Shown: one piece after another, positions 295-62,860 of the stretch
Position numbering within the stretch: position 1 is the stretch's first letter
Layout of the letters: the number at the start of each line of letters is the position of its first letter
Assembly (NCBI GenBank): GCA_950106755.1
Contig: OX467090.1
Location: 3,534,001-3,598,000, forward strand
Direction of reading: 5' to 3'
DNA length: 64,000 bases
Origin: Climacium dendroides
Lineage: Eukaryota; Streptophyta; Bryopsida; Hypnales; Climaciaceae
Notes under the pieces: model-generated
What the model saw: the letters and a program-made list of their open reading frames with translations, nothing else
What the model was told of the DNA's origin: nothing
Databases searched by the model: none
Made by a program: the position numbers and the translations under genes

Positions 295-544
295 CTAGAG
301 CACCAAGTCCATTTACAGAAAACGAAACAAACAGTCATTCTTCGGACAATACAATCTCCGTCGGGCCGAGTGATCCAGTGACAGAACTCGAAGAGCCTGG
401 CTGCAGGGATCTAGACATCGGCATTCGCATTCATTCTGTGAACTGGAAGTGCGATCTAGTTGAACCAAGCTCACCAAGCTTACCCAGCCTCCCGCACTTC
501 AACAGAGCTTCGATCAGAAGTCCAGAGCGAGCTAATTAATTGCC

Positions 545-18560: not shown

Positions 18561-18886
18561 CCGCCGCCACGCAGTGGACTACCACGTAGGCAAATGCCTA
18601 CATGGCAATCCACCACGTGGGCAATTTACCACACAAGTTGCCACGTGGCAACCCACATTGACTGGTTTCTAAAAAATTTCAATTTATTAAAAAAAATTGA
18701 AAATAAAATCAACAAATTTTTGTTGAAATTTTTTTCCAAATCAACAAGTTTAGTTGAAATTTTGTTCAAATTAACAAAATTTTGAACATAGTTTTGTTGA
18801 ATTTTGTCCAAATCAACAAAAAATTGTTGGACAATGTCCAAATCAACATTTTTTTGTCAATTTGGATGCTAATTTTTCTAGTAGTG

Positions 18887-35139: not shown

Positions 35140-35745
35140 AGCTGCTCATGCTGACGCCCGTGATGCTGGCAGCGGGACCCGGCCCAGGAGTTCTCCTTTT
35201 GCATTCAATACGGCCTCAGTACGGACGGAAGTGGGGGCCGCTCCACTAAAAACTCTGGGGACGGGATTGGTCGTTACGTTGTACTCTCCTTTTGCAATAT
35301 GTAACTAACATCCTTCTTATCGATCAAGAGGCCAAAAAAGAAGAAGTGGGGCTCACTTCCAACCCGTGGCGGCAGTTTAGCCTAGCATCAACTGCCTGCA
35401 ACCATATTGACCAAATATTGGTAATTCTCGAATTTTTCATCATTCTCCCTGTCCGTGGCTGCTCTTCCTTGGAACCAAGGTTGGAGGAAGTAACTTCCGC
35501 CGTCAACTGGTACGGCTCGCAAGTTTGAGTCTTCATTGGACGACACCTGCCGTGTCTTGCGTCGCTTCGCCTGCGCCCGGTCTACGTACTTGAGTGGAAT
35601 ATGAAATATTCAGAACACCAACTTCCTTCGAATGCAATTCGAAGCTGCACGCGCTTGGTCAACTTTGGTCCTTGAGTTCAGGATGGCCGCGCGCTGACCG
35701 AGTCCGCGTATATTGAACAGTCTAGATCCTACATGAAATGGAAAG

Positions 35746-35753
35746 TATAAAAG
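35746..35753 (+). promoter_or_regulatory. TATA box of repeat-peptide gene, copy B
   Basis: TATAAAAG, 258 bp upstream of the ATG at 36004, identical to copy A. Confidence 0.6.
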
Positions 35754-36003
35754 CTAGAGCACCAAGTCCATTTACAGAAAACGAAACAAACAGTCATTCT
35801 TCGGACAATACAATCTCCGTCGGGCCGAGTGATCCAGTGACAGAACTCGAAGAGCCTGGCTGCAGGGATCTAGACATCGGCATTCGCATTCATTCTGTGA
35901 ACTGGAAGTGCGATCTAGTTGAACCAAGCTCACCAAGCTTACCCAGCCTCCCGCACTTCAACAGAGCTTCGATCAGAAGTCCAGAGCGAGCTAATTAATT
36001 GCC

Positions 36004-36165
36004 ATGGCTGTGATGGGCGACGGGGGATCATCGAAGTGGAGGCCTCCCTCGAAGGCGTCTCCCTTGGGCGACGGAGGCTCGTCCAAGTGGAGACCTCCGT
36101 CCAAGGCTAGTCCCATGGGGGATGGCGGGTCCTCCAAGTGGAGACCTCCGTCGAAGCGCCAATGA
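36004..36165 (+). CDS. 53-aa tandem-repeat small protein, copy B
   Basis: Base-for-base the same ORF as 545-706: three GDGGSSKWRPPSK repeats in a 53-residue basic protein with a strong start context and a TGA stop. An AATAAA at 36617-36622 could end the transcript. Because copies A and B are almost identical, they add no independent evidence of selection; that comes from copy C. Confidence 0.73.
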   Translation: MAVMGDGGSSKWRPPSKASPLGDGGSSKWRPPSKASPMGDGGSSKWRPPSKRQ

Positions 36166-36740
36166 AACGAGCTTGTCGGGATCGATTGATCGATCGATCG
36201 AGAACATGCATTCACGACTGTCAGCACTAGGCAACGAAAGCAAGAATTCCACCTTGAGTTCGTGTGAACAACCCGACCAATTCAATCCCTCCCTCCTTTG
36301 CTTGCTTGAGTCAGATTTTCCAACCGAAGAATCCAGTGCAGTTGAATGCCAACGTAGCAAGCTTTTCCAGGAGAACACGGACTAAACGACGTCTTCAATT
36401 CGTCGACCTCCATCATCGAATATCGAAGGAGATCTCGATCTGACAACGCATGAGCTCCTAAGTAGTTCAGAGTTCTTTTGTTCGGATTCAGTTGACAGCA
36501 ATGAATATTCAACGGACTAGAATAGTTCCAGTTCCAGTTTCTTTATTCATACATCGATTTCAGCCAGGACGTTGCAACAGACACTGATATCACAGCTTCG
36601 AAGCTGCCCATTTATTAATAAATGCATCAGGTGACTGTTCGTTCGAAAGTTAAGGCCTTCGAGTCTTCGATTGGTTGAAACACTGGTCTCTGCGTGGCAT
36701 TGGGCTGCTGCTGATTGTCATGCATGATATCGAATGTCTG

Positions 36741-43600: not shown

Positions 43601-44641
43601 GGACCGAGTAAGGTCTCTGACACCGGCCTAGGCGGAAAATGTCTCGAATCCCGTGATGGCGTGTAGAGGAATTCCACCACTTCAGAAATTTTATCTTGTG
43701 ATCTGCCGAGGTATTGCAAGTGGCCACCATTTGGAGTTTTTCTAGAGTCATCTCCGAAACCTCATTGGAACTCCAATGTTTCTCAATCTGGTCAACAAAA
43801 GAAAAGAAAAGGCTATTACATTTCAATGTCCCAATGACATCAATGGATTCAGATTATGACGTGGGTCATGAAATCACCTCATCTAGAAAACCTTGTTTGT
43901 TAGCTGGATTTGCCACCGCAACCAACTTAGACATTTTCACATTGAGTTTACTAGTCTTCTCATGTGCTCCGGATCTCATAGCATGCGCCAGTCCCTCCTC
44001 AGTTCTATCATCCTCTGGAGTCATCTCATTGTACCTCTGCAGTGCTGCATCTGCAGATTGGGCAATTTCTTGCTGCAGAAGTGGGACAGGAAAAAATTTC
44101 ACATTAATGATTGTATAATAAGAAGGTACAAAAAAATATAATACATATGAATGGAGAAGCATTCACAAAGATTCTCACCCTGAAAACAAACGACGTGAAG
44201 ACTTGCAGTGGCATAGAATACCAAGTCTTTTTAGCTTTAGAGGCACTACATAGTCGGAGCTCCGACGGCCTCAGCATCTCTTTGAACCGTTCAATAGGAA
44301 GGAGACCATATTTCTGAACCCAGTATAATGTGTGCACCAAATTGGTCTTCACGTGCGAGTCTTCTGTGGACCTGATGCGTTTAGAAGCAATTTCAATTAG
44401 TGTTGTACCCAGCATTTGCCACGTAGTTCAAATCAATGAAAACAAGTCAAACATTAAAGTTCCAATGAGGTAGAGAACAGACTTACTTGTTAATGTCATG
44501 CATGACATGCATGACCAATTTGGTCTTGCCCTTCGTATCTAGTACAATGGAGTCCACCGCGTAATGCCACTCCTCATCGTTGGAGTGTTTTTTGGTAATG
44601 TAGTTCATCCATGAAATGAGTCGGTGATTACCATCACAAAC
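40634..44641 (-). pseudogene. ParB-methyltransferase gene, 3' part (interrupted)
   Basis: Minus-strand exons with GT-AG borders are 44487-44641, 44179-44371, 43878-44072, 43570-43787, 43205-43440, 42114-42840, 41664-42008, 41299-41578, 40998-41204 and 40634-40887. The first completes a ParB-like DGNHR-LISW motif. Later exons give a helical middle part, a Lys/Glu coiled-coil and a Rossmann methyltransferase. Its motif order is LIIFDCQENLP (in the place of DPPY) first and VVLDCTTATGASI with GRHIVALEED (SAM-binding motif I) last, which is the beta-class order of N6-adenine/N4-cytosine DNA methyltransferases. The canonical DPPY is not present, so catalysis is doubtful. Damage: TAG at 42312, 41964 and 41715, a 1-nt frameshift near 43716, and an acceptor CACAA at 43441. 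The 5' part lies beyond a hAT insertion at 58852. Confidence 0.75.
44634..44641. repeat. Target-site duplication, left
   Basis: TCACAAAC directly before the hAT left end. It matches TCACAAAT at 58852-58859 in seven of eight bases. Confidence 0.9.
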
Positions 44642-44820
44642 CAGGGTTGTCTATCCGGACGTGACATGGGCTTTTCACGTCCGGATGTCATGACGCGTCC
44701 GTTTTGACGTGTCGTGACGTCGTCAGGATCCGTCACCAATACTGACGTGACCGTTTCAGCATGGATGAAGTCTGTCCAGCTGTGGACGGACTCCTGGACG
44801 GACTCCCGGACAGTAAGCCG

Positions 44821-45257
44821 TCCCCCGGACGGTAGGCCGTCCCCAGGACGGGAAGCCGTCCCTAGGACGGGAAGCTGTCCCCAGGACGAGAAGCCGTCCC
44901 CAGGACGAGAAGCCGTCCCCAGGACGGGAAGCTGTCCCCAGGACGAGAAGCCGTCCCCAGGACGGGAAGTTGTCCCTAGGACGAGAAGCCGTCCCCAGGA
45001 CGGGAAGCTGTCCCCAGGACGAGAAGCCGTCCCCAGGACGGGAAGCCGTCCCCAGGACGGGAAGCTGTCCCCAGGACGGGAAGCCGTCCCTAGGATGTGA
45101 AGCCGTCCCCAGGACGGAAAGTCGTCCCCAGGACGGGAAGTCGTCCCCAAGACGGGAAGCCGTCCCTAGGACGGAAAGCCGTCCCCAGGACGGGAAGCCG
45201 TCCCCAGGACGGGAAGCTGTCCCCAGGACGGGAAGCCGTCTCCAAGACGGGAGGCCG
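44821..45257. repeat. CGTCC array 1: 23 units of 19 bp
   Basis: Twenty-three consecutive 19-bp units of the type TCCCCAGGACGGGAAGCCG. Each contains CCGTCC and GGACGG in inverted orientation, so each unit can form a small hairpin or bind a dimer. It lies 180 bp inside the left end and about 320 bp upstream of the transposase ATG. Long ORFs on both strands here are artefacts of the period and do not code. Confidence 0.95.
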
Positions 45258-45576
45258 TTTCCGTTGGGCTTAGGGTCCACCCGTCGACACATCAGCCGCC
45301 TGCGTCAGTCCGTTTAGCTGGGTTTTAGGGTTTCAGGATCGCCTTGAAAGGTGTATATTAAGGACTTACGCCTATTCAAGATTACTTTTCCTTGCTGATT
45401 TTGGCTTTCATGACTTGGTTGGAGTACAACCATTGCGGTAAAGCAAAATCCAAGAAGAATGTGTTGTGGTGGCACTTGTTGTGAGAGCAACAAGTATTGC
45501 TTCTACATCGCATTTCATACAGAATACTAATCTTCTTTCTTGTGCAGGGGCAAGTAGGAAAGAATAGATAAGAGCA

Positions 45577-48567
45577 ATGGGTGGAGGAAGATCACATTGG
45601 GAACCTTGGTACACACTACGAGTGGATGGAAAAGTTGCTTGCAAATTTTGCGAAGCTTTGCTAAGCTATCGAAAAGATCGGTTGCTTTTCCATTTGGGGT
45701 ACCGACGAATAGACAAGCTCCCTGGAGTGAGAGCCTGCACTAAAGTTAGTGCAGCCGTGAAGCTAATGTTTTTTAATTGCGGAGGGGATGTACTTGCAAG
45801 CACTCCGGACAGGAGTAGACAGGATGTGGAAGTGACATCTCCATCAATGGTACTTCCGAGTGTTGTACGTGGTGAACAAGAACCTGATGCCTCAATCTCA
45901 GGAAATGATGGAGGAGAAAACACTAGGGGACAAAGCTCTCAAGTACGATCATCAGACGCACCCAACCCGAGTTTGGCCCACAGTCGATCAATGAGGCAAT
46001 TGTCTGTGCAAGAAGGTATGAATACATCAAACAAGCAAGTACTAGACAAAAAGTGGGCTAAGTTCTTCTATGAAGCCAATATACCTTTCAATGTAGCGAG
46101 GCATCCGGCTTTTTTGGATGCCGTGAAATCAACATCAGAATCGAGAGTTGGCTACAAACCTCCAGCGTACCATGCACTTCGTACAAACCTCATGAAATCT
46201 ACAAAAGACGAAGTGGCGGCAATGGTAGTGGAGAAGACAAAGGCACCAATTCACAAGTACGGCGTTACAATATGCTCTGATGGATGGGACAATGTCAACC
46301 ATCGACCATTGATGAATGTCATGTTGGCATGTACAAGTGGAGAGGTATTTCTTGGAGCAATAGACACAACAGGCGAACGCAAAGATGCTACTTATGTGGC
46401 TAATTGCATGGGTGATTATATTGATAAGGTAGGGGCGCAAAATGTGGTACAAGTTTGTATAGACAATGCAGGGAATATGTTGGCTGCTAGTGCTTTGTTA
46501 CTTCGTCGATTTCCACACTTATATTTTCAAGGGTGTTCAGCACATGCACTTGACCTTCTACTTGAAGATTGGGGCAAACAAGATTGGATAAAAAGTATGG
46601 TCAAGACAGCCAAGTCAATTGTGAAATACATTCGCACACATCACATGCCACTTGCAATTTTTCGACGACATTCTCCTAATCTCATTTTGAAGAATCCCGT
46701 TGAAACACGCTTTGCAACCATGTTCCTTATGATTGAGTGTTTGGTACATGTGAGGGTAGCGATAGAATCAACAGTCCACGATCCGCAATGGAATGAGTAC
46801 ACAGAGAGATTGACATCAGAGGAAAATAAAATAAAAGCCAACGATGTGCAACGGTATGTACGAACAGATGAATTTTGGAGGAGATGTTTAAACTTTGTGC
46901 ACATAGTGGAGCCCGTATTGGTTGCTCTTAGAGAGTTTGATGGCAAGCACCCATGCTTAGACAAGGCATGGATTGTGATGAAAAAGGTGGAAAAGCATGT
47001 TTTATCTCTACGGGATCCACCATTTTCTTTGGAACCACGGTATGCAATTCCTGCCATCGATGATTTCTACAAGCGTTGGGGCATCCTAAGGATAGATTTG
47101 CATTATGCTGGGGCTCTATTGAATCCTTTTTTACTTGACAAAGTTTTACTAATGGATGATGACGAGGCAAGAGAAGGCATATTGAGAGTATTGCACAAAT
47201 TGGCTGTTCCAGATCAAGCATTTGCTTCAGCTTTGTCTGAGTACCAAGCATTTCGAGATCGTCGGGGCATTTTTGGTGGACTTCCCGATGTAAACACTTT
47301 AAATTTGCAGCCTCATGAATGGTGGGACCTTCTCGGAGCCGGTGCTCGTACACTTGTACCAATTGCAAAAAAGATCCTCGCCCAAGTGTGCTCTGCATCG
47401 TCGTGTGAACGCAATTGGAGCATGTATTTGTTTGTCCACAACAAATTACGCAATAGACTGACATCAGAGCGTGCTCAGGAATTGGTTTACATTTACACCA
47501 ATTCCAAAACTCTTAGAGAAAGGGCTGTAGCAAATCCGACAAGGTGGTACACCGAGAACATGATGTCAGAAGATTCCATGACCGATGAATCGGATGGTCT
47601 AGACCGTGGTTCGGTTCGCTCTAACCCCAATGATGACGATTCAGATGATAGTTCCAATGATGACGATGACCCACCATTCCATGGATTTCAGGGGGCGAGA
47701 GGAGTGCGTCCTCTAATTGATGCATCTGTATTTGACTTTGAAGAGGGGGATAATAACGACAATGACCACGAGGGATATGATGGAAGTCCACCACAAATGC
47801 CACAAGGGTGGAATATTGGGTCAAGCGGGGGAAATACAAATGAAGACATTGTGGCACCGAGACCACTAAATTCAGATCCTATCGATGTACAAGTTGATGC
47901 CCCAATGGAAAGAGATAGTGTTGACATGGAAAGAGGACGTGAACAAGACGTAGTAGTACCACAATCATTGCCTACGAGGACCACCCACGAAGAAGGGCCC
48001 CCTCATGGTGGAGAATTAGATATGCCCCCTCCAAGTCAAGGGAATGTTGCACTACAACGTCAAACACCAATACTAGAGAATCTACAAATCCAAAGTTCAG
48101 CCAAGCCATCTAATTCCGGAGTTCGTCTACATGGACCCACTTCAACGATAGGTACACGATTGGCTAGTATGGTGTCCCAGCGTATGACTACAAACCCGAC
48201 TTCATTGCACCCACCTACACGCGCCAATAATCGAGGGAAGCATCCACGACATGAAGGTACTACTAGTCAACGTGTGAGTCCTAGAACACGTAGAAGACTA
48301 ACGAGAGAAGAAGCGGCATCCCAATCATTTTCAAGAGAAGTTCACATAGGAGGGCCTAGTATAGATGGCATTATGGACGCAACGGGCCAACGGCCTCTTC
48401 GAACATTGTCTTCTATAATTCGACCACAACGAAATCGAAATTCGAATGCCTCTAGCGAAAGTGGTAGTGCAACATCCAGTGATGATGGTGAGTCCATCGG
48501 TGCTAGTATAGGCGAAGATGGTGAGGTTCCAGGAGATAGTGATTATCTAGGGACAATGCCTCGATAA
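45577..48567 (+). CDS. hAT transposase, 996 aa
   Basis: Catalyses cut-and-paste movement of the element in the nucleus. N-terminus: a BED-type zinc finger (W12 region, CKFC at about residues 23-26, then a His about 10 residues later). Catalytic core (DUF659/RNase-H-like): CSDGWD with D235, CIDNAGN with D296, then CSAH (C320-x2-H323), the hAT CxxH. C-terminus: hAT dimerisation block WWDLLGAGARTL to SSCERNWS (E611, candidate third acidic residue), then RLTSERAQELVYIY. After about residue 660 the tail is acidic and disordered. ATG is preceded by a 3' splice site (TTGTGCAG), suggesting a leader intron. The TAA at 48565 is probably a late nonsense change, because the frame continues 30 codons to TGA 48658-48660. 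The core is uninterrupted, so activity is possible. Confidence 0.92.
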   Translation: MGGGRSHWEPWYTLRVDGKVACKFCEALLSYRKDRLLFHLGYRRIDKLPGVRACTKVSAAVKLMFFNCGGDVLASTPDRSRQDVEVTSPSMVLPSVVRGEQEPDASISGNDGGENTRGQSSQVRSSDAPNPSLAHSRSMRQLSVQEGMNTSNKQVLDKKWAKFFYEANIPFNVARHPAFLDAVKSTSESRVGYKPPAYHALRTNLMKSTKDEVAAMVVEKTKAPIHKYGVTICSDGWDNVNHRPLMNVMLACTSGEVFLGAIDTTGERKDATYVANCMGDYIDKVGAQNVVQVCIDNAGNMLAASALLLRRFPHLYFQGCSAHALDLLLEDWGKQDWIKSMVKTAKSIVKYIRTHHMPLAIFRRHSPNLILKNPVETRFATMFLMIECLVHVRVAIESTVHDPQWNEYTERLTSEENKIKANDVQRYVRTDEFWRRCLNFVHIVEPVLVALREFDGKHPCLDKAWIVMKKVEKHVLSLRDPPFSLEPRYAIPAIDDFYKRWGILRIDLHYAGALLNPFLLDKVLLMDDDEAREGILRVLHKLAVPDQAFASALSEYQAFRDRRGIFGGLPDVNTLNLQPHEWWDLLGAGARTLVPIAKKILAQVCSASSCERNWSMYLFVHNKLRNRLTSERAQELVYIYTNSKTLRERAVANPTRWYTENMMSEDSMTDESDGLDRGSVRSNPNDDDSDDSSNDDDDPPFHGFQGARGVRPLIDASVFDFEEGDNNDNDHEGYDGSPPQMPQGWNIGSSGGNTNEDIVAPRPLNSDPIDVQVDAPMERDSVDMERGREQDVVVPQSLPTRTTHEEGPPHGGELDMPPPSQGNVALQRQTPILENLQIQSSAKPSNSGVRLHGPTSTIGTRLASMVSQRMTTNPTSLHPPTRANNRGKHPRHEGTTSQRVSPRTRRRLTREEAASQSFSREVHIGGPSIDGIMDATGQRPLRTLSSIIRPQRNRNSNASSESGSATSSDDGESIGASIGEDGEVPGDSDYLGTMPR

Positions 48568-49264
48568 GGTCCACGAGTAGAAAGTGGTGGTAATGAACCA
48601 ATTGTAACAGAAGCAACGGCCAATACTTCTAGGCGCGTTCTTAGGCATGGAAGACGTTGAATGTTTTTCAAAAGACAATAGGATCTTCATGTTTTCAAAT
48701 GAAATGGATTTTGAGGCTCAATACCTTACATATTGAAATCGGCATTAATATGAAGTAGTACTTTTGTTCCTTTCATTCTATCCTTCATTTATGGTAAGGG
48801 TTTCAATTTATTTTGATATATATTGTAACTAATATGATTTGATTTCCATGTTTAGCTTTTCTAAAATCAAAATAAATAGATTTTTTCATTAAATTAAAAA
48901 AGGCATAACTAGAAAATGGATTCTTATACTAGCCAAAAATATTAAAATATTCTACTGATTTCGAATAAAAAGATAAATTTGGGTTGATAGTCAAATTTGA
49001 CTTCAAGGTGTTTGTTGTAGTTGTTTACTTGTTTGAGGTGTGATAAAAAAAAAATACACTCAATGTTTAGATAAAATACATTTATATATATATAAAAACG
49101 AGTACAAAATGGATTGAGGGCACAAAGTGTGCTACATTGCTATGGATGTCCTGAAGCCGATACTATAATAACCACATTTGCTAAGAAAACATTAATTTTG
49201 CAAATCTATGGTAATACACTATCATCTAATCCTCATTGCACGCTTAGTCATCTTGAAGGTCTTG
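48568..49264. other. Convergent 3' region
   Basis: Space between the transposase and the oppositely oriented kinase gene. The first 93 bp look like the original transposase C-terminus. The rest is AT-rich with no gene. Confidence 0.5.
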
Positions 49265-50887
49265 TTATTTCCGGGCCTCGCGGTAGCAATCCACGAGTGG
49301 TGTCCAAAACGTTGGAGCACCACTTAGACGTTGCACGGCAAATGTCACTGAGCGTCGTTGTAGTGGCTCCACCTTGCACAATTCACCCAGTGTCGCTTGA
49401 AATGTACCAAATGCCGTATGGTCAGAAATCATCTCTGTATTTTCGCGATCCTTTTTCCATACCTTCATAGCCAATCTTCCTATAGAGTATCCATCCATGT
49501 GTATACTAACAGATGGCGGCTTACCCATGCGACTAGGAGATGTTGAAGTTCCTGTCTCTCCAACCATGTACATCAACTCCGGAGCCACCCACCAACGTTA
49601 TTTGCGAGTTGCCTGCAACTTATTTGCACAACTGAATTGGTAAAGAGAAGGGGTTTCTTCATTGATGCGGCTACCCATTCCCCAATCACATAGACCAATC
49701 CACACGGTTCTTCCATCGTCATTCGGAAAGTGAAGCATGATGTTCTCCGGTGTGATGTCATTGTGCAGTATTGAACATTGTTGCACTGCATCCACAATGC
49801 AGAGCAACGCCCACGCAAGTTCGGTGCGCTTCTGTCTGTATGCCATAAGTCGTTTCATAGCTTGCATTGTTTGTGGAGTTGCATGGTAAGCCACCTCCCC
49901 AATTTCGTCTGGATCTCGGGTCTTCTCATCAAGGGTAAACATGGCGCTCAGAGTATCTCCATTCCATCATTGAGAATAACACTCCATGGTCATGTCATTT
50001 ATGGCAAAGAATTTGATGACCCTTGGATGATCGCATGGACAAACCAATGCCTCAATGGACAACTTCTCCCTTGACTTCTTCAAGTCATCAACGCGCACGG
50101 TTGACTTCCCAGCTAATTCCATATTCTCGGGAATATGGTTCGAATTCTGAAGACAAACCTTGCGCACCCTCCCATGCCCCCCTTGTTTGTTATGGCCAGA
50201 CAACGGAACCACCACAACTCCTCTCTCAAGAAAAACCACTCTACCCGCAGCTTGTTGACCAAAGGCCAAGTTTTGACTTCGTTGAAACCACGGAGCAGAA
50301 CGGATGTTGTTTGAAGATAGTCCCCGCATTGCTTCATGCCACCAATACACCTTCTTGTGCAACAAATTCAATGCTTGTTGTTTGGGAACTACACTCTTTT
50401 GAAAGCCTTTGATTTTTTCCGTAACTTGGGCAAGGTTGAAGATGCACGTTTGCACTTGTGACTCCAGCCAATGATTGAAGGATTCCTTTGTGCGGTCTTC
50501 CAACCACTCATCCTCGCTCATTGTTGTCCAAAACATGTGGTGGAACTTTTGTTTGATGGCATCCACCCCCTATAATCCGCGCGACACATATGTTGTGTTC
50601 AACTGCGGAATTGAATACTGCTCAAAAAAACCCAACGCCACTTCATGCAATTTGCGCGTTGCAACCTTGCTTGGCCACTTCTCTGGATTTGTGGCCTTGT
50701 GCCTTTTCCATTGTTTTTTCTTCGACTTTGAAGACTCTCCCGCACCCACAATTGCTATGGCTCCTTTTGCAGCTACAGCCTCTGAAATTTGGCTTTCTGA
50801 TTCCGCAGACGGGTCCAAACTCGTTCCATCTCCAACTCCTGAAAACCACGCATCAACCTTCCTCTTCGAGAAATCGCGACCAGCCAT
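49265..50887 (-). pseudogene. Protein kinase cargo gene (decayed)
   Basis: One continuous minus-strand frame of 541 codons, ATG 50887 to TAA 49265, broken by TAG 50570, TGA 49967 and TAA 49598. It has no frameshift. About 230 N-terminal residues lack known motifs. The kinase domain follows: a Gly-rich loop GGHGRV (residues 236-241), a candidate Lys (K261) and alpha-C Glu (E279), HPRVIKF, the catalytic loop HNDITPEN (H375, D377, N382), DWG (D401) in place of DFG, VAPE (434-437), and DGYSIGR for subdomain IX. HND and DWG are variants seen in divergent plant kinases; the catalytic Asp and Asn are present. The substrate is unknown. It is transcribed away from the 51094-51480 CGTCC array. The stops correspond to CAG, CGA and CAA changed by C-to-T. 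Confidence 0.8.
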
Positions 50888-51093
50888 TGTGATAGTAGTG
50901 ATAATCCAGAGGAATTAGGAATTCGGATTCCACAAAGTGAAAAACCGACCCCTTATTCCTCAAACCAGCCTCTCACAAGCACCCGCACTCCCAAGCAAGG
51001 ACTGCAACCAATCCAAGACAAGCGAGCACCGTCAGAGCAAGAGAGACTGTGGCAGAAATGAATCCAACCCCCTTCTATATACCCATTTCCTCT

Positions 51094-51480
51094 CGACGGC
51101 ATGACCGTCAATCTGGACAGGCATGCCGTCCACAGGACGGACATGCCGTCGAGAGGACGGACATGCCGTCGAGAGGACGGACATGCCGTCGAGAGGACGG
51201 ACAGGCCGTCGAGAGGACGGTCATGCCGTCCACATCGACGGTCAGGCTGTCGACAGGACGGACATGCCGTCGAGTAGACGGTCGCGTCGTCCAGATCGAC
51301 GGACAGGCCGTCGAGAGGACGGTCATGCCGTCCACATCGACGGTCAGGCCGTCGACAGGACGGACATGCCGTCGAGTGGACGGTCGCATCGTCCAGATCG
51401 ACGATCATGCCGTCAAGAGGACGAACTCCGTCCCCCATCCACGGGCGTCCAGGGCGTCCAGGGGACGAAAAGACCGTCGA
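51094..51480. repeat. CGTCC array 2, upstream of kinase gene
   Basis: Tandem units of about 20 bp such as GACGGACATGCCGTCGAGAG. They share the GACGG/CCGTC core with the other arrays but have a different unit. The array begins about 200 bp upstream of the kinase ATG. ORFs across it are artefacts of the repeat. Confidence 0.92.
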
Positions 51481-52387
51481 AACAAGCTGTCGCCCAAAGT
51501 GCTGGAAGCATGGAATTAATTGCGAATCCTTGTTCGGGGAATTTCTCAATTATCTTGTTTTCCACCTTGGGACTTGTTAGGACAGGTGTCCATGTTTGAA
51601 CTACTACATTGTCTATGGTGGCGGGAAGTTTTGGAGTGCTAATTAAATGTTCACGTTTGTTCCTATGAATGTACAAATAAATACCAATAATGACATTCAA
51701 ATGCAGATGAAGGGTTTAGGGTTTAAGCTCGAATAAAATGGAATTTTATTTAGTTGCACATAAATAAAGGGAAAAACATAGACCAAAATTACAAAAGGGC
51801 ATATTCAAAACATCTTAATTTAAGACCTGAAATATTTTTGATGTTCACATAAAAAATTGGGTCATTTCATTTGCACCCATAATAAGAAAGTCGTGGCCAA
51901 TGTTTGTATTACAACGATCAAGGCATCCCCTCACAACTTAAATAATTTATATGGATCAAATTTAAATGCAATGAATTTTAGAATTCCATATAGAGTAATT
52001 TCACCTTTGGAATTATTGTAATTTGATTCCAAGCTTCCCTATATGTAAGTGCACCTAACAATTTCACAATTTAGTATTTCTTGAATATTCAACCTGCATG
52101 TATTCAATTCAAACATACAAACATTCACTAATTTACTAAGTCCATATCAAATATACAGAATCAAAGACAAAATGGGCCTCTAAAAGCTAAACTTTGATAT
52201 CGTAAACTTAATTTTAAAATCATTCATTAAAAAAGATATCTAAAAAACGTCGAAAAAAAAATGTATAATATAGAATCATTGATTCATTACAAACATTCCT
52301 ACTTCTTGCATTTGATCCAATACACCAAAACAAGAGGACTTCCCCTATCTATGCTGAAAGATAAACTTATACTCTGATTTATGTTTC

Positions 52388-52600
52388 CAAGTAAATCCTA
52401 AACTCTAATAATCCATACCCTATACCCTAAACTCTATACTGTAAACCCTAAACCCTATATCCTAAACCCTATACTCTATACACTATATCCTAAACCCTAA
52501 ACCCTATACCCTATATCCTAAACCCTATACGCTATACTTTGTACCCTATATCCTAAACCCCACACCCTATATCCTAAACCTATACCTTAAATGCTCTTTC
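52388..52600. repeat. Degenerate telomere-like tract
   Basis: A run of AAACCCTAAACCCTATA and TATCCTAAACCC variants over about 210 bp. The heptamer CCCTAAA alternates with decayed forms such as CCCTATA. It is an interstitial tract inside the hAT element. Confidence 0.85.
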
Positions 52601-53083
52601 TTATTTTCCTTTTAAGACTATTTGATGTTGCTCAACTTTATGTGATTTTAGCAAATAATTTCAAATTGAAGTAAGACCAAATCCAAAAATAGATGAATGT
52701 CTTCTAATATTTCATATAGTTTTCTAACAAATGTTTCGCCGAAAACCGTAATATATTACATTTGTCCTTTGGGTTGAAATTTTGATCTAGTTTCTTGTCC
52801 TATATACTAAAAGTCTTCTAACTAATGGTTTTAGTTTAATTTAGGATACTAACACTTTTGAATCTACAACTCATATCTATATTTTACTTATTTCCTATTA
52901 CATTAAAAGTGAACCAATATGGTGTTTTACAGAATAGAATGTAGATAATTAAAGAATATATAATCTTTAAATGGAAATACTGACATCCTCATATAACCGC
53001 TAGTTAATTCTCAAAATCATCGAACCATGCAAGTTGAATGAAGTGTGAAGCCAATAATACCTTAACATCCATAATATTCCCTG

Positions 53084-53189
53084 TACCTTTATAATATCAC
53101 ATTTTAACACTATGTGATGTTACAGAAGTGGAGTGGCTGTTGCAATTTTGTATTATTATACGGTGTTAAAATGTGATATTATAAAGGTA
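53084..53189. repeat. 27-bp perfect inverted repeat
   Basis: The arm at 53084-53110 (TACCTTTATAATATCAC...) is exactly reverse-complemented at 53163-53189, with a 52-bp loop. Related words (AATATCACA, GTGTAAAAT) recur just after, at 53198-53220. Probably a small MITE remnant. Confidence 0.85.
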
Positions 53190-53888
53190 TTGGGCCTCTG
53201 TAATATCACACTGTGTAAAATTATGGTATTACAAAGGACCTTGTGATTTTAGTAGTATGATAGTGGTTGGCGCTTGCTATGCTACACATTCATCATTTGA
53301 ATTTTATTGAATTTTTATGTATTAAATAAAATAAAGAACACAAATTTCAATAAACCTTCAAATAAAAGTTTCAATAAACCTTCTATTTACTACTAAAATC
53401 TTTATATAATTTTGTTTATAAATAAGCATATATTGAAATGTACAATAGAAATTTATTGAATGATGAATAAAATATATGCAATGGGCAATATGTAAAAGAT
53501 CTACATGTATTATTAGAATTTTAATGTATTTGACAAAATGCAGAACACAAATTCCAATAAATTTTCAAATCCAAATTATTAAAATCTTTATATAAATTTT
53601 TTATAAATAAGAATATATTGAAATATAAAATAAATATTTATTCAATCATGAATGAAATATATCCAATGGTGAATGTTGTAAAAGATAAAATATATAATAA
53701 AATGCATTAGTAATTTGACTCAATTGTTACAAACAATGGCAAAACAAATTGAAGAATTGAAAAGAAAACTTGTAAATCTCAAAAACTTTGTAAACAACTT
53801 TGTTGAGAGATCCAAAATTGCTTCAATTGAATGAATTTTTCACATCATTTGGTAGTAGCAATAGAAAATTTCAATCATGAACACACAA

Positions 53889-54090
53889 AGGGCAAGCCGT
53901 CGAGGGGACGGGCAAGCCGTCCAGCAGGACGGGCAAGCCGTCGAAGGAACTCGCGGGCGGCGCCGTAATGATTTTTCAATCCTCTTTTCGGCGCCCCGAG
54001 CCTTCGGACGGCTTTCCAAACCTGTCCCGAACCTTCGTGGACGGATTGACCGTCCATTCCAAGGCCGTCCCACATCCCTGGACGGTCTGG
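53889..54090. repeat. CGTCC array 3, upstream of RING gene
   Basis: Shorter and more degenerate than the other arrays: GACGGGCAAGCCGTC units at 53889-53945, then scattered GGACGG and CCGTCC words to 54090. It ends 285 bp upstream of the RING gene ATG. Confidence 0.85.
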
Positions 54091-54374
54091 ATTCGAGCTG
54101 GATGACATGATTACGTCCTAATCACCGGGCGTAATTGGGTCGGTAATTCGGAGGTATAAGTATGTTTATCCCCCTCATTTGAAATCGCTTCCTCTTTTGA
54201 GTTGCTTTGTCCTTACTTGAGAAAGCTTTGCATTGTAATTCGAGAGGAAGTGTTATACATCTGGCATTTATTTTGCCACTTTTCAGTTGCCTTCACGCAA
54301 CAGAAGGCAAAGCAAATTGTCAGTGTATCCGCAAACAGACTACAGGTACAGGGAATTTGGGACAGGTATCCAAA

Positions 54375-56579
54375 ATGGATGGAGAGGATGCAGCACGAGG
54401 TTCAGGACATGGAGGTGAGCCCGCAAATAGAAAGAAGAGGGGGAACAGGGCAACTTTAGATTGGGGCACACTCAATGCCCCGGAGATTCTGGCAAACGAG
54501 GGGTGGATGAATGAAGATTCACTGTGGACAAGAGTGACGTGTCGTAAGTTCGTAGATTGGGCCCACATCAACCGCCATTGGGCACTTGACCGGTACGAGG
54601 TAAATGTGAAATGCGGGGTTGTAAATTTCGACCAGTGCCGACATCCACACTTCAAGAAGAGATTGATTGAAGTGGCATTGGCAATTTGGGGTTCGAGATC
54701 CAGAAGAGATGGGACCCTTTCGTTGTGCCAAATGGCATATGCGGAAGTTTTTCTTGGGAAGGATGTGGATTAGAGAACCTTCCTCGGCAAGATGCGTCAT
54801 GGTCAATCACCAAATAGACCTCGCAGCATTCCACCAAACCCTGCCGTGCCATTGGACAATGTACCCAATGTGCAAGAAAACTCGGAAGAGCAAGTGGAGC
54901 AACCCGGGATGGAGGTGATGGAGGTAGAGGGTGGCATGGGCACCGAAGAAGACCTACCCAATGAAGATGCGATTGGTGGAGTGGAAGGTGAAGGTGATGA
55001 AGTACTTCGCTTGTGACAATTAGTCCAAACACTGCAAGCAGAAAAGGAAGCCGCATTACGACAACATGCTGTAGAGTTGGAAGGGCACAGGGCTAGGGTG
55101 AAGGCCCTTATGGATGAGAATGCAAGACTCATCGCACGCGAGGCCGACCTCGTAGCACGTGAAAGGCGGTTGAGTACGGACGAAATTCCACCACTTGATG
55201 TGGTGGTCGAACGTGCTACATACGGTGCAGACGAAGACAAATCAGGCCCCAGCAATGCAAACGAGTTTAGGGTGCGGTCACGGTCCTTGTTTCCGAGTGT
55301 TGGAGGTGCCATGTTGGATATTATGCGTGCACGTGCGGAGTGAGCTGAAGCAGAGGTTGGAAGTACTAAAGCCCACGTTGAAGAATTGACAAACGCTATG
55401 CGGGCTTTGGAACTTCGCGCCAACAAAGCCGAGGCAGATGTGGTGGTGCTTACTACAGCTCAAGCTGGCTTGGAGCAGACCATGACCGCATTAAGTGCTC
55501 AAAATATGCAGTTGGTCCAAAACCCGCAGAAGGAACGCATGCTGCTTCAAATGTGCAACATGAAGTTGACATGCAGCTTAGCACTAAGCGAGGTTGAGCA
55601 GATGCAACGTGAAGTGAAGAGAGTGGCTGCGGAGTTCAATAATGGCGGCAAACGTTATTTTGGCTTGACCTCGTGGCCTCGAGTAGAAGAAATGTTCACT
55701 GATGATTTGCCAGTGAAGCTCGAGAATGCAAGCATCGATTGGAATAGTTCTCCAGACTTGGAATTCCAATACGACACGGAGCGCTATCGATACGAGCCAG
55801 CGAACGGCGATGGGATTAGGCCACTAGTGTGGCCTTTGGTTCCCGATTTTGTTCAAGATGGCCCCACATGTATTATGTGCCAAGAACCATTTGGCCCCGA
55901 GGGTGGATGGCATCTTGGTACATGTGGCCATTTATACCACCCCATGTGCCTCATTCCACACATGGTCACCCGAAAAAGATGTGCACAATGCAAGGCTCCA
56001 TTTCATCCAAGGCTGTACAAAATGTTTGGCCTCCAAGCCCACATGCCTGAACATTACGAGCACAATGAAGAAAATTTACCAGGGCCCGCGAATAGAGCGC
56101 ATTGGGGGATGGACATGACTTAGCTTTGGAAGTGGGGCCACGACAATCGACACCTCCCGGCAAGAACGGTTGTGGAGATACACTAGGAGAATGATGACGC
56201 GGTGACAGAGGTGATTAAGAGGGTAATTGGAGCTGGTGATCCAGGGCGGCGATTATATTTTGGTCAAATTGCTGGTGGACATTGGGACCCGGACCTCTCC
56301 ATTTTTGTGCGTGCACCACATCCACAAGGCATAATGTTTAACTCTCAAGGCATGCTTGTTGGATTCGAAGGTGAATTGAGTTTTGAGGAAAAAATGAACT
56401 ACATTGAAGACAATACCTTCCATGAGCCTGCACTTGTGAGTGCCATTTTCTCCTATTTACACAATAGATACGATTATGACGCACATCAGCTTTTGACGAC
56501 TTTGCAATCAAGAGAAGAGTTGCAAAGATTTTTGAGAAGCAGCATAGCACGAGGCATTGTAATTGAAGAAATAGAATAG
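54375..56579 (+). pseudogene. Coiled-coil RING-H2 cargo gene (decayed)
   Basis: One continuous frame of 735 codons from ATG 54375 to TAG 56579, broken by TAG 54771, TGA 55014, TGA 55341, TAG 56121 and TAG 56184, with no frameshift. Order: a Trp-rich N-terminal globular region (LDWGTLNAPEIL, WAHINRHWALDRYEV); a Pro/acidic linker; a long coiled-coil (about 55017-55640, Ala/Glu/Arg heptads); then RING-H2 at 55869-55991 with the exact pattern C-x2-C-x14-C-x-H-x2-H-x2-C-x10-C-x2-C. A C-terminal region follows (RRLYFGQIAGGHWDPDL). RING-H2 proteins are usually ubiquitin E3 ligases, so a role in ubiquitylation is inferred. All eight zinc ligands remain. Every stop fits CAG or CGA changed by C-to-T. 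Confidence 0.82.
55869..55991 (+). other. RING-H2 zinc-binding domain
   Basis: Begins CIMCQEPFGPEGG and ends CAQC, with GTCGHLYHPMC between. All eight Cys/His ligands are present and correctly spaced. Confidence 0.9.
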
Positions 56580-58119
56580 ATAGTTTTTCATGACGCTGTG
56601 TACAAATAGATAGATGCATAGAATTAAATTTCTAAAGTTGTACAAAGTAGAGCAATGTAAAGCCTAAACCAATGTACCACGTTTTGATGGATTTATAAAA
56701 CATTGTACATTTATCATTTTCTTTTCCCCTCGTGTATTGTTGCTTTGCCTTTGTCTTTTGGGTTAATCCATTGGCCGTTTTCCTATTAGTGTAGAAGAAT
56801 CTTATATACTTAGATGGTAGAACCCTCACGGATTATTATTTTTTTATTTCTTGCCAAACAATGTAAAATCAATTTAGCAACTTTTGTAATTAGAAATTCA
56901 ATAACGAACTCTAATCCCTTATCCTTAGAATCCTAAATGTCCAAGGTTTGCTTTGAGCTTTGTAGAATTTGCTCTAAATTGAACAACATGTCAACATTTT
57001 CATTAGGTGTATCAATTTTCAAAAAATTGTAATTGTATAAATTCGAACTAGGCATGTTAGTTACCACATAGAAAAGGAATCCTAAACAATATCACTTATG
57101 GAATAAAAGATTATAATGTTTGCCCAGGAGGGTGCTAAAACTAAAAAAATGATGTGAAGTCTTACAATCCTCTTTTTACAAGTCCAATTTAAAAAATTGG
57201 TGACCAAACAAATATGAGATTAGAGGACCTAATATGTATAACCCCAATCAATTTATGCCTTTTAAAAATCTATACTATAATTTTCTTTAATTTTAAATGA
57301 ATTTTGAATGTCATTTTTCCTCCAAGATCCAATGTTTTTGAAGCACATTTCCAAGACCTCTCAATACTACAACAAGTCAAGATTGCAATAGGTACCCTTG
57401 CACAAAGTTTAGAATAGAAAAATCACTATCACATATTTTTAAGAACAGACTATTGATGCTATAACTAGAATTCAAGAACAATTTTTTAACTTCAAAGTTT
57501 GAACAACACCAGATTTGGGTGCCTTGGGCATGTAGGGGTTAACCATTTTTTGGACGATGAACAAATTCAGCTTCCTATTTCAGTTTGGTTTTTGCTTGGA
57601 TCAAAGTCATCCTAATTTTTGGTGATACTTTATCTAGTTGACTAGTTCATGTCTTATCTAATGGTTTGATTTGTTGTTCTTAGAATACACATTTTTCTAA
57701 AATTACAAATGTGGAAGTGTGTCAAGTGGTCAACTTGCATTGACACTAGTTCAAAATTGAATTTGCAAAAATGAGGTCATAGATGTAAAGAGTATAAAAA
57801 TTTCAAAAAATCACCATGTCAATGCAACCTCATTTTAAGTCCATTCCAACAAATTTCAATCGAGGAATGATAATATTTTGCTTGTAATTGAATTTTGAAG
57901 GAATTTTGAATTTTTCCTTTCAAAATGTATAGAAAAAGATTGGTGATAGCATTGGTAGATCTAACCTTACGGATGGAATCTACAACTCAAAATCTACAAC
58001 TTCTGTTTGTATACCAATTCCAAAATATTCTTCTAAATCATACTTTATAATGGTATTTTCCAAATTGTCATTTTGGGAGAAGAGTCCAGATGTTCAGGGG
58101 TTAAGTGCAACAAATTCAA
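56580..58119. other. AT-rich gene-free DNA in hAT element
   Basis: 3' side of the RING gene. No ORF or repeat that I can support. Confidence 0.5.
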
Positions 58120-58700
58120 AGCCCATCCATCCCGCCAAACCGTCCATCTCGACCGTCCAGCCAAATCGTCCATCTCGACTGTCCAGCCAAACCATCCATC
58201 TCGACCATCCAACCAAACCGTCCATCTCGACCGTCCAGCCAATCCGTCCATCTTGACCGTCCAGCCAAACCGTCCATCTCGACCGTCCAACCAGACCGTC
58301 TAGATCGACGGTCCAGATCGACCGTCCATCTCGACCGTCCAGCCAGACCGTCTAGATCGACCGTCCAGATCGATCGTCCATCTCGGCCGTCCTGCCAGGC
58401 CGTCCAGATCGACCGTCCAGATCGATCGTCCATCTCGGCCGTCCTGCCAGGCCGTCCAGATCGACCGTCCAGCCAGGCCGTCCAGATCGACCGTCCAGCC
58501 AGGCCGTCCAGATCGACCGTCTAGCCAGGCCGTCCAGATCGACCGTCCAGCCAGACCGTCTAGATCGACAGTCCAGATGGACTATCCAGGTCGACGGTCC
58601 ATCTCGGCCATCCAACCGGACTGTCCAGATCGACCGTCCAGCCCAACCGTCCACATCGACCGTTCATCCGACCGTCCATCGCAACCGTCCAGAGCTCCCG
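58120..58700. repeat. CGTCC array 4, right subterminal
   Basis: Long array of CCGTCCATCTCGA, CCGTCCAGCCAAA and CCGTCCAGATCGA half-units of about 13 bp, ending 150 bp inside the right end. It faces array 1 at the other end and shares its CCGTCC core. ORFs across it are artefacts. Confidence 0.93.
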
Positions 58701-58841
58701 GCGACGAAGCTCGTCCATCCATTTCTGTAGTCTGAATCATCCTTTGTTGCCGGTTGTCATTTGGATTTCATCTTGACGGACGCCGGGGATGGATCCTGAC
58801 GTCCGTCCGGACATCCTGACGGACGGATGCGACGTGACGGG

Positions 58842-58851
58842 GACAACCCTG
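58842..58851. repeat. hAT right terminal inverted repeat
   Basis: GACAACCCTG, the exact reverse complement of 44642-44651. Next to it, GGATCC with GACGTC-type words is shared by both subterminal regions. Confidence 0.92.
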
Positions 58852-60141
58852 TCACAAATATAGAACTTAAGGTTATTCAGAAACCTCAACTTAGGTTCGG
58901 AGTTCATACTAGCATTGAAGATGTCATTCTTTGCCTTCCACAACGGATCCCACTTCTCTATCTCTTCTTCTGTGAATTGTGAGCTTTGTCTACCTTCATC
59001 CGTTGTTGTGACATAGAAAACTGCCGCTCCATCTCAGTAACCTTTGCTGAACTCATGCTCCAAGAAATCAAGATCACATGACAGAGTCGGTCTCACCATG
59101 GGCATAGGAACCATTCGGCAAAGTGGGATTTGTAGTCGGAAGAGGTGAGTCGGCTTCATCTTCAATGAAGCAATGGTATTCACTGAGTCCACCTTGTGAT
59201 ATTGTTGGAGATCGTCTTCCAACAAGTCTTTGTCATCATCCAGCAATAGGTCATCAATAACGTCCTCATCCACTACATCTCCTTCATTTTCACCTTCATC
59301 TTCACCTATAATGGGTGGTTGCATTGAATCATCGGTCTTCGGCATTTCTAGAATAGTCTCCTCGTACCAAATGTTTGTAGGAGTGCCATCCATCTACGAG
59401 GTTCACCCATGAAATTAAGCAACATGCTTGTACTCTCATCGAGGAATCTAAAATTCCGTTCAAACAAAACCGTAGTGGGATTCAATAAACAAATGATTGC
59501 ATGAGTAGTCAAGCAGTTGAGGGCAGAGTTTAGAAATCAAAGGACATGCATATTATAGGACACGTTTTGACGCGATATGTCTTTAAAGGAAATCCAATAC
59601 AATGGGATCAATCTATCTCTACATCTTCCTCTGAGTCAAAGCTCAGAAGAATGATGATGGGTTCTCCTAAACCATGAAATGCGCTACGTGCACAATCAAA
59701 AGTCTCCTCCATCAATGGCCCATCAATGGTGATGGAGACTTCTGTGTCTGAGGTGTACTCAGTGTCCGAACTCTCGGGAGACATACACTTGTTTGGGTTG
59801 TTTCTAGCCTTCTCAAGGATAAATTGAAGACATCTACGTTTCTGGGCAGACATGAGTTGACGTGCATGTCTTGGTGATTGGGTGTCACTCACTCGATTGA
59901 GTTTAGAACTTTCAAATGCATCAACAGCGAACTCAGCTGCCTCCATGACATCATTGAAACTTACCAACTCCTCATCTTGAACTTCTTGCTCCTCCATGTC
60001 TTTCTCTTCATCGGAATCGCTGGAATCCTCCATAGTTTCCTTCAGCGGTGAAAGAGCCTGTGATGGTTCTGCCTCATGAGTGCTTGGGACGTGAGGAGGT
60101 GTTGTCGTTGATGAAGAGACATTTTGCCCATGTCTAACCTT
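58852..60141 (-). pseudogene. ParB-methyltransferase gene, 5' part (interrupted)
   Basis: One exon from about 60141 (after TTCTAAAG) contains VRHGQNVSSSTTT and a Ser/acidic region and reads to a TGA at 59608-59610; its donor site is not certain. The next exon runs 59393-58852 (acceptor CTCGTAG). It encodes an acidic linker and then a ParB-like N-terminal unit: PMVRPTLSCDLDFLEHEF, GAAVFYVTTTDEG and LRFLNNLKFYICD, which joins DGNHRL across the hAT insertion. An in-frame TGA at 59034 stands where GY-x-DGA probably had Trp or Arg. By family knowledge, ParB-like domains with a DGNHR-type motif act on DNA or nucleotides and are often fused to methyltransferases in phages and mobile elements. Confidence 0.68.
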
Positions 60142-60733: not shown

Positions 60734-62860
60734 GGGGGTCTTGGTGAGTGCTGCCATGTAAACCTCGGATCTGAGGCTTGTCTGGCAACACCTACTAGGA
60801 CCCCCTAAAATTCAAACATTAGGCTTCATTTCCAAATGATACAAAAATACGAAATTCTAGTCTCCTGGGAATGACACGGACACATGATAAAAAAATGGGC
60901 CACTCATCCGTTGGACCTTTAGAGATTTCAAATAAAAGTATAGTGTTAAGAAAACAGGGGGTCCTTGTGAGTGCTGCCAGACCAGCCTCGGATTCGAGGC
61001 TCGTCTGGCAACACTCATAAGGACCCCCCTTGTTTCACAAATTTTTATTTTCTTACGATTGTTTCAAGAATCAGGATTAGAAGTAGCGGCTCAAAGACGA
61101 TTACATACCATCCTACTCTCAACCGAAAAAAGATGCCAACTAGGGATTCACGGCGCTCATTTGAAGACACCACCAGTAGTTGATGAGAAATCAAAGTTTT
61201 CTAATTGCGGGAGAGAATGGTCACAAGGCTGAAACTGAAAGGAATCGGCGGAAGAGCAGCACGGGGAGTGCAACCTCTGGCTCCATTTCATTGAACATGG
61301 AAATTGTAGCGGGCCTAGAATTGGAGAATTATCCAAAAAAGGGGGGTCCTGGTGAGTGCTGCCAGACTAGCCTCGGATCCGAGGCTGGTCTGGCAGCACT
61401 CATCAGGACCCCCCGATTCTCACAGATTTCACTTTACAATGGCAAGGACGTATTCATTAATGAAGAACAAAAGTTGCAACTCTGATACAATTATATACCG
61501 TTCTAGTCTCAACCATATCTATGCCAACAAGGGATTAGTGGGTGTTGATTTGATCACTTCACTAGCCCCTTCTGAGAAATCAAAGTGACTTGGTTTTGAC
61601 GGGGAGTATGGTCGCCAGGTTCATTTGGCGGAAGGGCAACACCATGAGATCAGGCTGCGGCTTCACTTCACTCAACAGGAGAATTGTATAAGGTCCACAC
61701 ATAGGAAGGACAAATACATTAAAATCTTTTTTGTGTTAAAAGAATGGGGGTCCTGGTGAGTGCTTCCAGACCAGCCTCGGATCCGAGGCTTATTTGGAAA
61801 CACTCACCAAGACCCCCCAAATTCAAAAAATCTGTACGATCGGAAGGAGACTAAGCGAACTGGATTGTTTCCACTCTCAGGACTCTATGGTTTGAAGGCT
61901 AAAATTGGATAGAATTCACAGAATTGCACCATGAGGAGTGGAGCGTGCGGATGGATTTAACTGAAGGTCGAGGTCGGATGCTTCAGAGGTCGATCCGGTT
62001 TTCCAAAAACCGGGGGTCCGGGTGAGTGCTGCCAAACCAGCCTTGGATTCGAGGCTTGTCTAGCAGCACTCACCAAGACCCCCTCCAAATTCAAAATGCA
62101 CTGTACAATCCGACCGAGACTGAACGAACAAGATTGTTTCCACTCTCAAGACTGTTGGGTCTCAAGGCTGAAATTGGAAAGAGCACCATTAGGAGTGGAG
62201 CGTGCGGTTGGATTTCACTCAAAACAGAGAGACAGACCAAGTCGAGGCCCAGTTCGGATGCTTCAGAGGTCGATTAGGTTTGAATTTGGGGGGGGGTCCG
62301 GGTGAGTGCTGCCAGACCAGCCTCGGATCCGAGGCTTGTTTGGTACCACATACTAAGACCCCCCCCCCAAATTCAAAATGCACTGTACAATCCGACCGAG
62401 ACTGAACGAACAGGATTGTTTCCACTTTCAGGACTGTTGGGTCTTAAGGCTGAAATTGAAAAGAGCACCATTAGGAGTGGAGCGTGCAGTTGGATTTCAC
62501 TCAAAACAGAGAGACAGACCAAGTCGAGGCCCAGTTCGGATGCTTCAGAGGTCGATCAGGTTTGAAATAACCAAGGGTCCGGGTGAGTGCTGCCAGACCA
62601 GCCTCGGATCCGAGGCTTGTTTGGCAACACTCACGAAGACACCCCCCCAAATTCAAAATGCACTGTACAATCCGACCGAGACTGAACGAACAGGATTGTT
62701 TCCACTTTCAGGACTGTTGGGTCTCAAGGCTGAAATTGGAGAGAGCACCATTAGGAGTGGAGCGTGCAGTTGGATTTCACTCAAAATAGAGAGACAGCCC
62801 AAGTCGAGGCCCAGTTCGAATGCTTCAGAATTTGATTAGGTTTGAAATAATCGGGGGTCC
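60734..62860. repeat. Array of seven perfect-hairpin units
   Basis: Seven palindromic units of 72-81 bp lie at 60734-60805, 60957-61029, 61341-61414, 61746-61818, 62012-62083, 62288-62368 and 62575-62648, with a final half unit at 62853. Each starts GGGGGTCC, reads GTGAGTGCTGCCAGACC, has the centre GCCTCGGATCCGAGGC and returns to GGACCCCC. From the fourth unit on, the spacers are also repeats (ATTCAAAATGCACTGTACAA...), giving a period of about 280 bp. No protein is coded. Each transcript unit would fold into a hairpin with nearly complete pairing. Confidence 0.92.

What the first reader, a model, noticed from the sequence alone, without database searches (positions are those of the whole stretch)
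44642..58851. A 14.2-kb hAT transposon carrying a protein kinase and a RING-H2 protein
Seen: matching 10-bp terminal inverted repeats, an 8-bp target duplication (7/8), an exon restored when the element is removed, and a hAT transposase with the D/D/E and CxxH motifs inside. Known: hAT elements usually encode transposase only. Inference: this is an element class that has gained two long signalling-type genes (kinase and ubiquitin ligase-like), each with its own promoter-proximal repeat array. Such cargo could act on host silencing or on transposase stability.
Basis: partly seen in the sequence, partly recalled or inferred. Interest (0 to 1): 0.93.

Follow-up and report, generated by a model that had tools for sequence, protein, structure and literature searches.

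The report
Jumping gene carrying kinase and RING
A family of large plant-type jumping genes moves around its genome as one 14-kb unit that holds, besides its own transposase, a protein kinase and a RING-finger protein, suggesting that the element brings its own signalling tools.

Summary
The window copy is one of a multi-copy family in its 412.6-Mb genome. Ten other copies were read: all ten match transposase, kinase and RING in one order. Nine have both ends and an 8-bp target duplication, seven exact and two 7/8. End stretches of ten more copies gave five. With the window: 15 sites, 15 different 8-mers. Genome-wide, 46 of 46 scored transposase loci have a convergent kinase within 1.03 kb, and 61 of 61 scored RING loci a divergent kinase upstream within 30 kb. 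So the 14-kb unit moves.

All 80 CCGTCC/GGACGG hexamers of the window element lie in four arrays: at both ends and just upstream of kinase and RING; the left one is also upstream of the transposase. Relatives in unnamed public contigs keep the catalytic residues, with one exception. Copies here are young but decaying by C-to-T change at CG and CHG; the window's kinase and RING frames carry stops. What kinase and RING act on is not shown; best guess: host silencing or the transposase.

The parts
44634..44641 (.). target-site duplication, left copy (TCACAAAC)
44642..44651 (+). left terminal inverted repeat CAGGGTTGTC
   Evidence: same or nearly same end in other copies
44783..45258 (.). left CCGTCC/GGACGG array (19-bp unit, 31 hexamers), at the left end and upstream of the transposase
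45354..45359 (+). TATA-like box before the transposase (TATATT)
   Evidence: read from sequence
45577..48567 (+). hAT transposase, 996 aa here; the frame runs on 30 codons after an early TAA to a TGA at 48658-48660
49268..50887 (-). protein kinase gene, convergent with the transposase; three internal stops (codons 106, 307, 430) in this copy
51076..51081 (-). TATA-like box before the kinase (TATATA)
   Evidence: read from sequence
51088..51460 (.). CCGTCC/GGACGG array upstream of the kinase (13 hexamers)
53890..54086 (.). CCGTCC/GGACGG array upstream of the RING gene (8 hexamers)
54155..54160 (+). TATA-like box before the RING gene (TATAAG)
   Evidence: read from sequence
54375..56579 (+). RING-H2 protein with coiled coil, divergent from the kinase; five internal stops in this copy
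58130..58826 (+). right CCGTCC array (28 hexamers, 27 in one orientation)
58842..58851 (-). right terminal inverted repeat GACAACCCTG
58852..58859 (.). target-site duplication, right copy (TCACAAAT)

Best explanation
SHOWN: this is one copy of a three-gene hAT transposon family that moves as a single 14-kb unit. The transposase lies at the left, a protein kinase is convergent to it, and a RING-H2 protein is divergent from the kinase. Tandem arrays of one short motif (CCGTCC/GGACGG) sit at both ends and just upstream of the two inner genes; in the window copy all such hexamers lie there. INFERRED: the transposase binds the end arrays to cut and paste the element. The same motif upstream of all three genes lets an element-encoded protein (most simply the transposase, through its zinc-finger-like N-terminus) switch them together. 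The kinase and RING are working accessory proteins, not passengers: kinase and E3 ligase are carried together because they act on one target, most likely a host factor that silences the element, or else the transposase itself, whose long serine/aspartate-rich tail could be phosphorylated. My odds: real three-gene mobile unit 0.97; accessory proteins under selection 0.85; arrays bound by an element protein 0.6; target is host silencing 0.4, transposase 0.35, other 0.25.
For: Copies with ends, target duplications and gene order. Linkage among scored loci 46/46 and 61/61. Open frames exist for each gene in this genome: kinase 10 of 54 rows spanning the query, RING 7 of 43, transposase 9 of 43, the window's included (the query lacks the last 34 or so codons). 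Relatives from unnamed public contigs. K261, E279, N382, D401 and A435-P436-E437 are invariant in 11 sequences (window read-through plus ten relatives), D377 in all but one. Kinase fold. RING profile. Kinase dN/dS 0.34 at dS 0.37 between the young family and one old copy. Arrays: 80 of 80 hexamers of the window element in four clusters, and four clusters of two or more hexamers in each of nine other copies. Copies look methylated: C-to-T per C or G site 3.9% at CG, 4.6% at CHG, 1.5% at CHH; other substitutions 0.28% of all sites.
Against: No expression, binding or activity data. None of the 11 copies read has all three frames open, so no autonomous copy was identified. Differences among young copies look neutral: the N/S of variants shared by two or more copies is lower than that of singletons in all three genes but not significantly (Fisher p 0.08, 1.0, 0.28). 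The dN/dS test rests on one old copy of the kinase alone. Substrates are unknown. The RING model is too poor to use (pLDDT 40). The RING is below the Pfam cut-off in the window protein and two of three relatives, and equals it in the third. The Foldseek matches of the kinase have low TM-scores (0.20-0.25 by query, 0.34-0.44 by target). Relative P0069 has lost the catalytic Asp.
Confidence: 0.7

Rival explanations
1. Passenger cargo: an ancestral hAT captured two host genes by chance and one lineage carried them in a burst; they do nothing for the element.
For: No fully open copy among the 11 read. Changes among young copies are close to the neutral expectation. Capture of coding DNA by plant DNA transposons is in print (Pack-TYPE paper PMC8903248, search listing and abstract start only).
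Against: Relatives of the kinase (56-82% over 85-100% of its length for seven of eleven) and of the RING (49-73%, three) exist in other public contigs. dN/dS 0.34 between an old and the young kinase. Catalytic residues kept in 10 of 11 sequences. Both genes present in the ten copies fetched, and a kinase beside every scored transposase and RING.
Confidence: 0.15
2. The kinase and RING work on the transposase, not on the host: phosphorylation of its acidic serine-rich tail and ubiquitin-driven turnover limit or license transposition, as copy-number control.
For: The transposase has a C-terminal tail of about 350 residues or more after the dimerisation region, rich in Ser and Asp in relatives too. 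The three genes travel together and have the same motif upstream.
Against: Four more distant transposases (39-41%) have similar tails, and whether their elements carry a kinase could not be looked up. No substrate data.
Confidence: 0.35
3. The inside is a set of nested insertions: the kinase and RING belong to a second element sitting inside a plain hAT.
For: Internal arrays resemble terminal ones, as a merged element might.
Against: Spacing transposase-kinase is 699-1029 bp in 46 of 46 scored loci. All three genes in 10 of 10 fetched copies. Among the 25 of 35 inverted-repeat pairs shown for 48560-58140, none encloses both genes.
Confidence: 0.03

Closest known systems
hAT7 transposons of rust fungi carrying a TET/JBP dioxygenase (PMC12730594; passages seen)
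   Same: hAT transposase plus an accessory gene thought to counter silencing
   Different: 7-bp target duplications against 8 here; the cargo is a methylcytosine dioxygenase, and no kinase or RING is mentioned for hAT7 in the passages seen; fungal
IS3EU transposons of rust fungi with an alpha-kinase gene (PMC12730594; passages seen)
   Same: DNA transposon encoding a kinase in the opposite orientation to the transposase
   Different: IS3EU, not hAT: 6-bp target duplications, terminal repeats over 30 bp; alpha-kinase, whereas here the gene hits Pkinase (PF00069); no RING gene mentioned in the passages seen
VANDAL elements with VANC anti-silencing proteins in Arabidopsis (PMC10398659; abstract and outline seen)
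   Same: Accessory protein of the element; noncoding tandem repeats are the recognised target; arms race with silencing
   Different: Mutator-like, not hAT; VANC is not a kinase or RING protein (recalled); here binding of the arrays is untested
Ac/Ds of maize (PMC3260210, search listing and abstract start)
   Same: hAT (recalled) with 11-bp terminal repeats and subterminal repeats (abstract start); 8-bp duplications and binding of subterminal repeats by transposase (recalled)
   Different: Ac is 4.6 kb (abstract start) and encodes transposase only (recalled); no arrays upstream of inner genes
Pack-TYPE / Pack-hAT elements (PMC8903248, search listing and abstract start)
   Same: Plant DNA transposons carrying coding DNA
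   Different: Those are non-autonomous and capture and shuffle coding DNA; here a transposase gene is present and the cargo is full length in many copies

Membership tests
hAT superfamily | 8-bp target-site duplication | tested here: met
   15 insertion sites with 7/8 or 8/8, 11 exact. One further copy with both ends gave 3/8; another with a weak right-end match (3 mismatches) gave 0/8 and is discounted
hAT superfamily | short terminal inverted repeats starting CAGNG (consensus recalled) | tested here: met
   CAGGGTTGTC/GACAACCCTG; some copies have one or two changes in 12 bp
hAT superfamily | hAT dimerisation domain and hAT-type catalytic core in the transposase | tested here: met
   PF05699 8.4e-8 and PF04937 1.3e-37; D235, D296, C320, H323 nearly invariant and E611 invariant in ten sequences; assignment as D/D/E and CxxH recalled
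hAT superfamily | transposase catalyses excision and insertion | not testable with these tools
   needs an excision assay
eukaryotic protein kinase (PF00069) | catalytic residues Lys, Glu, Asp, Asn, Asp and APE | tested here: met
   K261, E279, N382, D401, A435-P436-E437 invariant and D377 in all but P0069, 11 sequences; role of each residue recalled; HRD-to-APE stretch aligned to Fus3
eukaryotic protein kinase (PF00069) | reaches the curated Pfam cut-off | tested here: met
   window read-through 35.3, P0067 33.2, P0070 34.5 against 31.7; the distant P0075 29.1 is below
eukaryotic protein kinase (PF00069) | kinase fold | tested here: met
RING-H2 E3 ligase | C3H2C3 zinc ligand pattern | tested here: met
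   ligand columns invariant in four sequences; profile hit to RNF24 3.1e-5
RING-H2 E3 ligase | reaches the curated Pfam cut-off | tested here: inconclusive
   P0066 27.3 bits equals the cut-off 27.3; P0064 25.9, P0065 22.9, window 21.1
RING-H2 E3 ligase | ubiquitin ligase activity | not testable with these tools
   needs an in vitro assay
IS3EU with alpha-kinase | 6-bp target duplication and terminal repeats over 30 bp | tested here: not met
   8-bp duplications, 10-bp perfect terminal repeats
Pack-TYPE / Pack-hAT | non-autonomous, without a transposase gene | tested here: not met
   46 scored transposase loci, 43 rows spanning the whole query, each beside a kinase
VANDAL/VANC-like anti-silencing system | element protein binds the tandem repeats and removes silent marks | not testable with these tools
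   arrays present, binding unknown

The most novel reading that the evidence does not exclude
A lineage of large hAT transposons has its own signalling module: a kinase and an E3 ligase, both switched on from arrays of the same motif as the transposon ends, which together mark and remove a host silencing factor (or license the transposase). Homologues of all three proteins in unnamed public contigs would make this a wider, so far unnamed clade of three-gene hATs.
Probability: 0.35. Interest if true: 0.87.

Novelty: new variant of a known kind. Interest (0 to 1): 0.74.

Why it matters
hAT elements are usually thought of as transposase plus ends. A family that moves with a conserved kinase and RING protein would mean a cut-and-paste transposon can carry a post-translational control kit, as some viruses do. 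Dozens of young copies, relatives elsewhere and a clear repeated motif make the idea directly testable: what do the kinase and ligase hit, and does the transposase read the same motif at the ends and upstream of the genes? It also gives a plant-type parallel to fungal transposons that carry TET/JBP genes and to VANDAL/VANC.

Tried and rejected
Nested-insertion reading: not supported. Looking for relatives with their DNA context: viral-contig scans with kinase, RING and transposase alignments and one genome-contig scan with the kinase (a second was allowed and not used) found none, so gene order in other species could not be read. A hint only: kinase P0070 and transposase P0004 both list 6,480 bp as their longest contig, which would fit one contig; this was not checked. 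RING structure: model too poor to search. Literature: eight of the nine searches made looked for a hAT, or another DNA transposon, with a kinase, RING or other cargo; the ninth was on VANC. In the titles and abstract starts listed I saw no hAT with a protein kinase or RING gene. Only parts of two papers were opened, and the library is open access only, so absence from print is not shown. Number of ends without genes (short derivatives): not answered (last tries).

Full report
The claim and its test. The window lies at G000:C39:3534001-3598000 of a 412.6-Mb assembly, so this could be tested, starting from the kinase; the search starting from the ends did not complete.

Ends. The 10-bp inverted repeats occur once each in the window, flanked by TCACAAAC and TCACAAAT. 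Ten copies were fetched, namely the ten stop-free ones among 54 kinase rows spanning the query, as pairs of 10-kb stretches. With up to two mismatches allowed in 12-bp end motifs, and pairs listed only if 6 or more of the 8 flanking bases agreed, 9 of 10 have both ends with a duplication of 7/8 (two) or 8/8 (seven). Sizes are 13.7-14.4 kb, and 16.4 kb for one copy with an insert in its transposase. The tenth (C2) has a 1.3-kb insert, and its match stops about 1.8 kb short of the right end, which was not found. Short stretches at the expected ends of ten more copies, next in rank and all with kinase stops, gave both ends in 6 of 10: four exact, one 7/8, one 3/8. In the other four an end was not found in the stretch fetched; one of these had a weak right-end match (3 mismatches, 0/8) that I discount. 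With the window: 15 sites, 15 different 8-mers, 11 exact.

Gene content. In 10 of 10 fetched copies tblastn finds transposase, kinase and RING in one order. Genome-wide only the best candidates are scored, so counts are lower bounds: kinase 81 rows or 75 loci, RING 61, transposase 46 loci. All 46 transposase loci have a convergent kinase 699-1029 bp away. All 61 RING loci have a divergent kinase upstream within 30 kb, 58 of them within 7.3 kb. 62 of 75 kinase loci have a scored RING; at least two of the 13 without do carry one in the fetched DNA (C3:30395315, C34:17759006). Since the scored loci are the closest relatives of the window copy, remoter elements without kinase or RING may exist.

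Proteins. The transposase has DUF659 and the hAT dimerisation domain. 61 relatives passed E 0.001 among the 7,994 candidates scored; the four with plant names are the four weakest, 26-32% identical. The kinase has 11 relatives: seven at 56-82%, three at 32-36%, and one broken copy at 95%. The RING has three at 49-73%, one of them partial. None of these 14 bears a species name in the listing. Kinase: an N-terminal helical region of about 120 residues (pLDDT 75-91) and a kinase domain whose model is only modest. Its 16 Foldseek matches with E up to 0.001 are Ser/Thr and Tyr kinases, with low TM-scores. Catalytic residues are conserved, except the catalytic Asp in P0069. RING: coiled-coil middle, C3H2C3 RING, conserved C-terminal region.

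Arrays. All 80 CCGTCC/GGACGG hexamers of the window element fall in four clusters (31, 13, 8 and 28), against a mean of 4.1 and maximum of 10 in 200 first-order resamplings of the element; 8 more lie in the other 49.8 kb of the window. Nine other elements show four clusters in matching places, lone hexamers not listed. Three clusters lie just upstream of a TATA-like box and a gene start; the fourth is the right end, nearly all in one orientation in the window. That the upstream arrays are promoter parts is inferred. The motif contains CG, so binding could be methylation-sensitive (inference).

Age, decay, selection. Pairwise difference among eleven copies averages 2.1-3.4% per gene, mostly G-to-A and C-to-T, enriched at CG and CHG, a pattern expected of plant-type methylation (inference). 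Nonsynonymous to synonymous ratios of singletons are near the neutral expectation (transposase 2.84 against 3.15; kinase 2.00 against 2.41; RING 2.28 against 2.56). For variants in two or more copies they are 1.58, 1.91 and 1.74, not significantly lower (Fisher p 0.08, 1.0, 0.28). So young copies show little or no constraint. Between an old, broken kinase copy (L057) and the young family dS is 0.37, dN 0.126, ratio 0.34. The old copy's own decay is included, so the true constraint should be stronger. None of the eleven copies read has all three frames open, though each frame is open somewhere in the genome.

Host site. The window insertion breaks a minus-strand open stretch that is 110 codons long when the flanks are joined.

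Reading. The unit is a hAT family with two accessory genes. Selection on the kinase, conserved motifs, tight linkage and a motif shared by ends and upstream regions argue that the accessory genes serve the element. The nearest printed parallels I saw are fungal hAT7 with TET/JBP, IS3EU with alpha-kinase (passages of PMC12730594) and VANDAL/VANC with tandem-repeat targets (abstract of PMC10398659). The substrate is unknown; host silencing and the transposase are about equally likely.

Noticed in passing
window 1-1269 and 35460-36728: Direct repeats 99.92% identical over 1,269 bp, 35.5 kb apart, like the two LTRs of a young retroelement; a related 185-bp piece (91%) lies at 32531-32715.
   Followed up: no
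window 61746-62860: Tandem array of a 280-bp unit, four copies.
   Followed up: no
window 4527-6093, 17311-17534, 38879-39424: AT-rich repeat family in both orientations, about 72-80% alike, three places.
   Followed up: no
window 18758-24266: Broken plus-strand coding pieces with the motif HTHDDIDALFSRW, seen elsewhere in transposon-linked plant proteins (recalled; pieces).
   Followed up: no
L016 about 7654-7799 (copy C34:33670333): A second pair of end-like motifs only about 146 bp apart lies just outside the right end of this copy, possibly a tiny non-autonomous derivative.
   Followed up: no
L057 (C1:47225600-47228400): An old diverged kinase copy, 83% identical in DNA, with an insert and several stops: the family has a long history in this genome.
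   Followed up: partly
protein P0073: A contig of 10,923 bp in ENA encodes a broken kinase 95% identical to the window's, so the host or a close relative may occur in that source.
   Followed up: no
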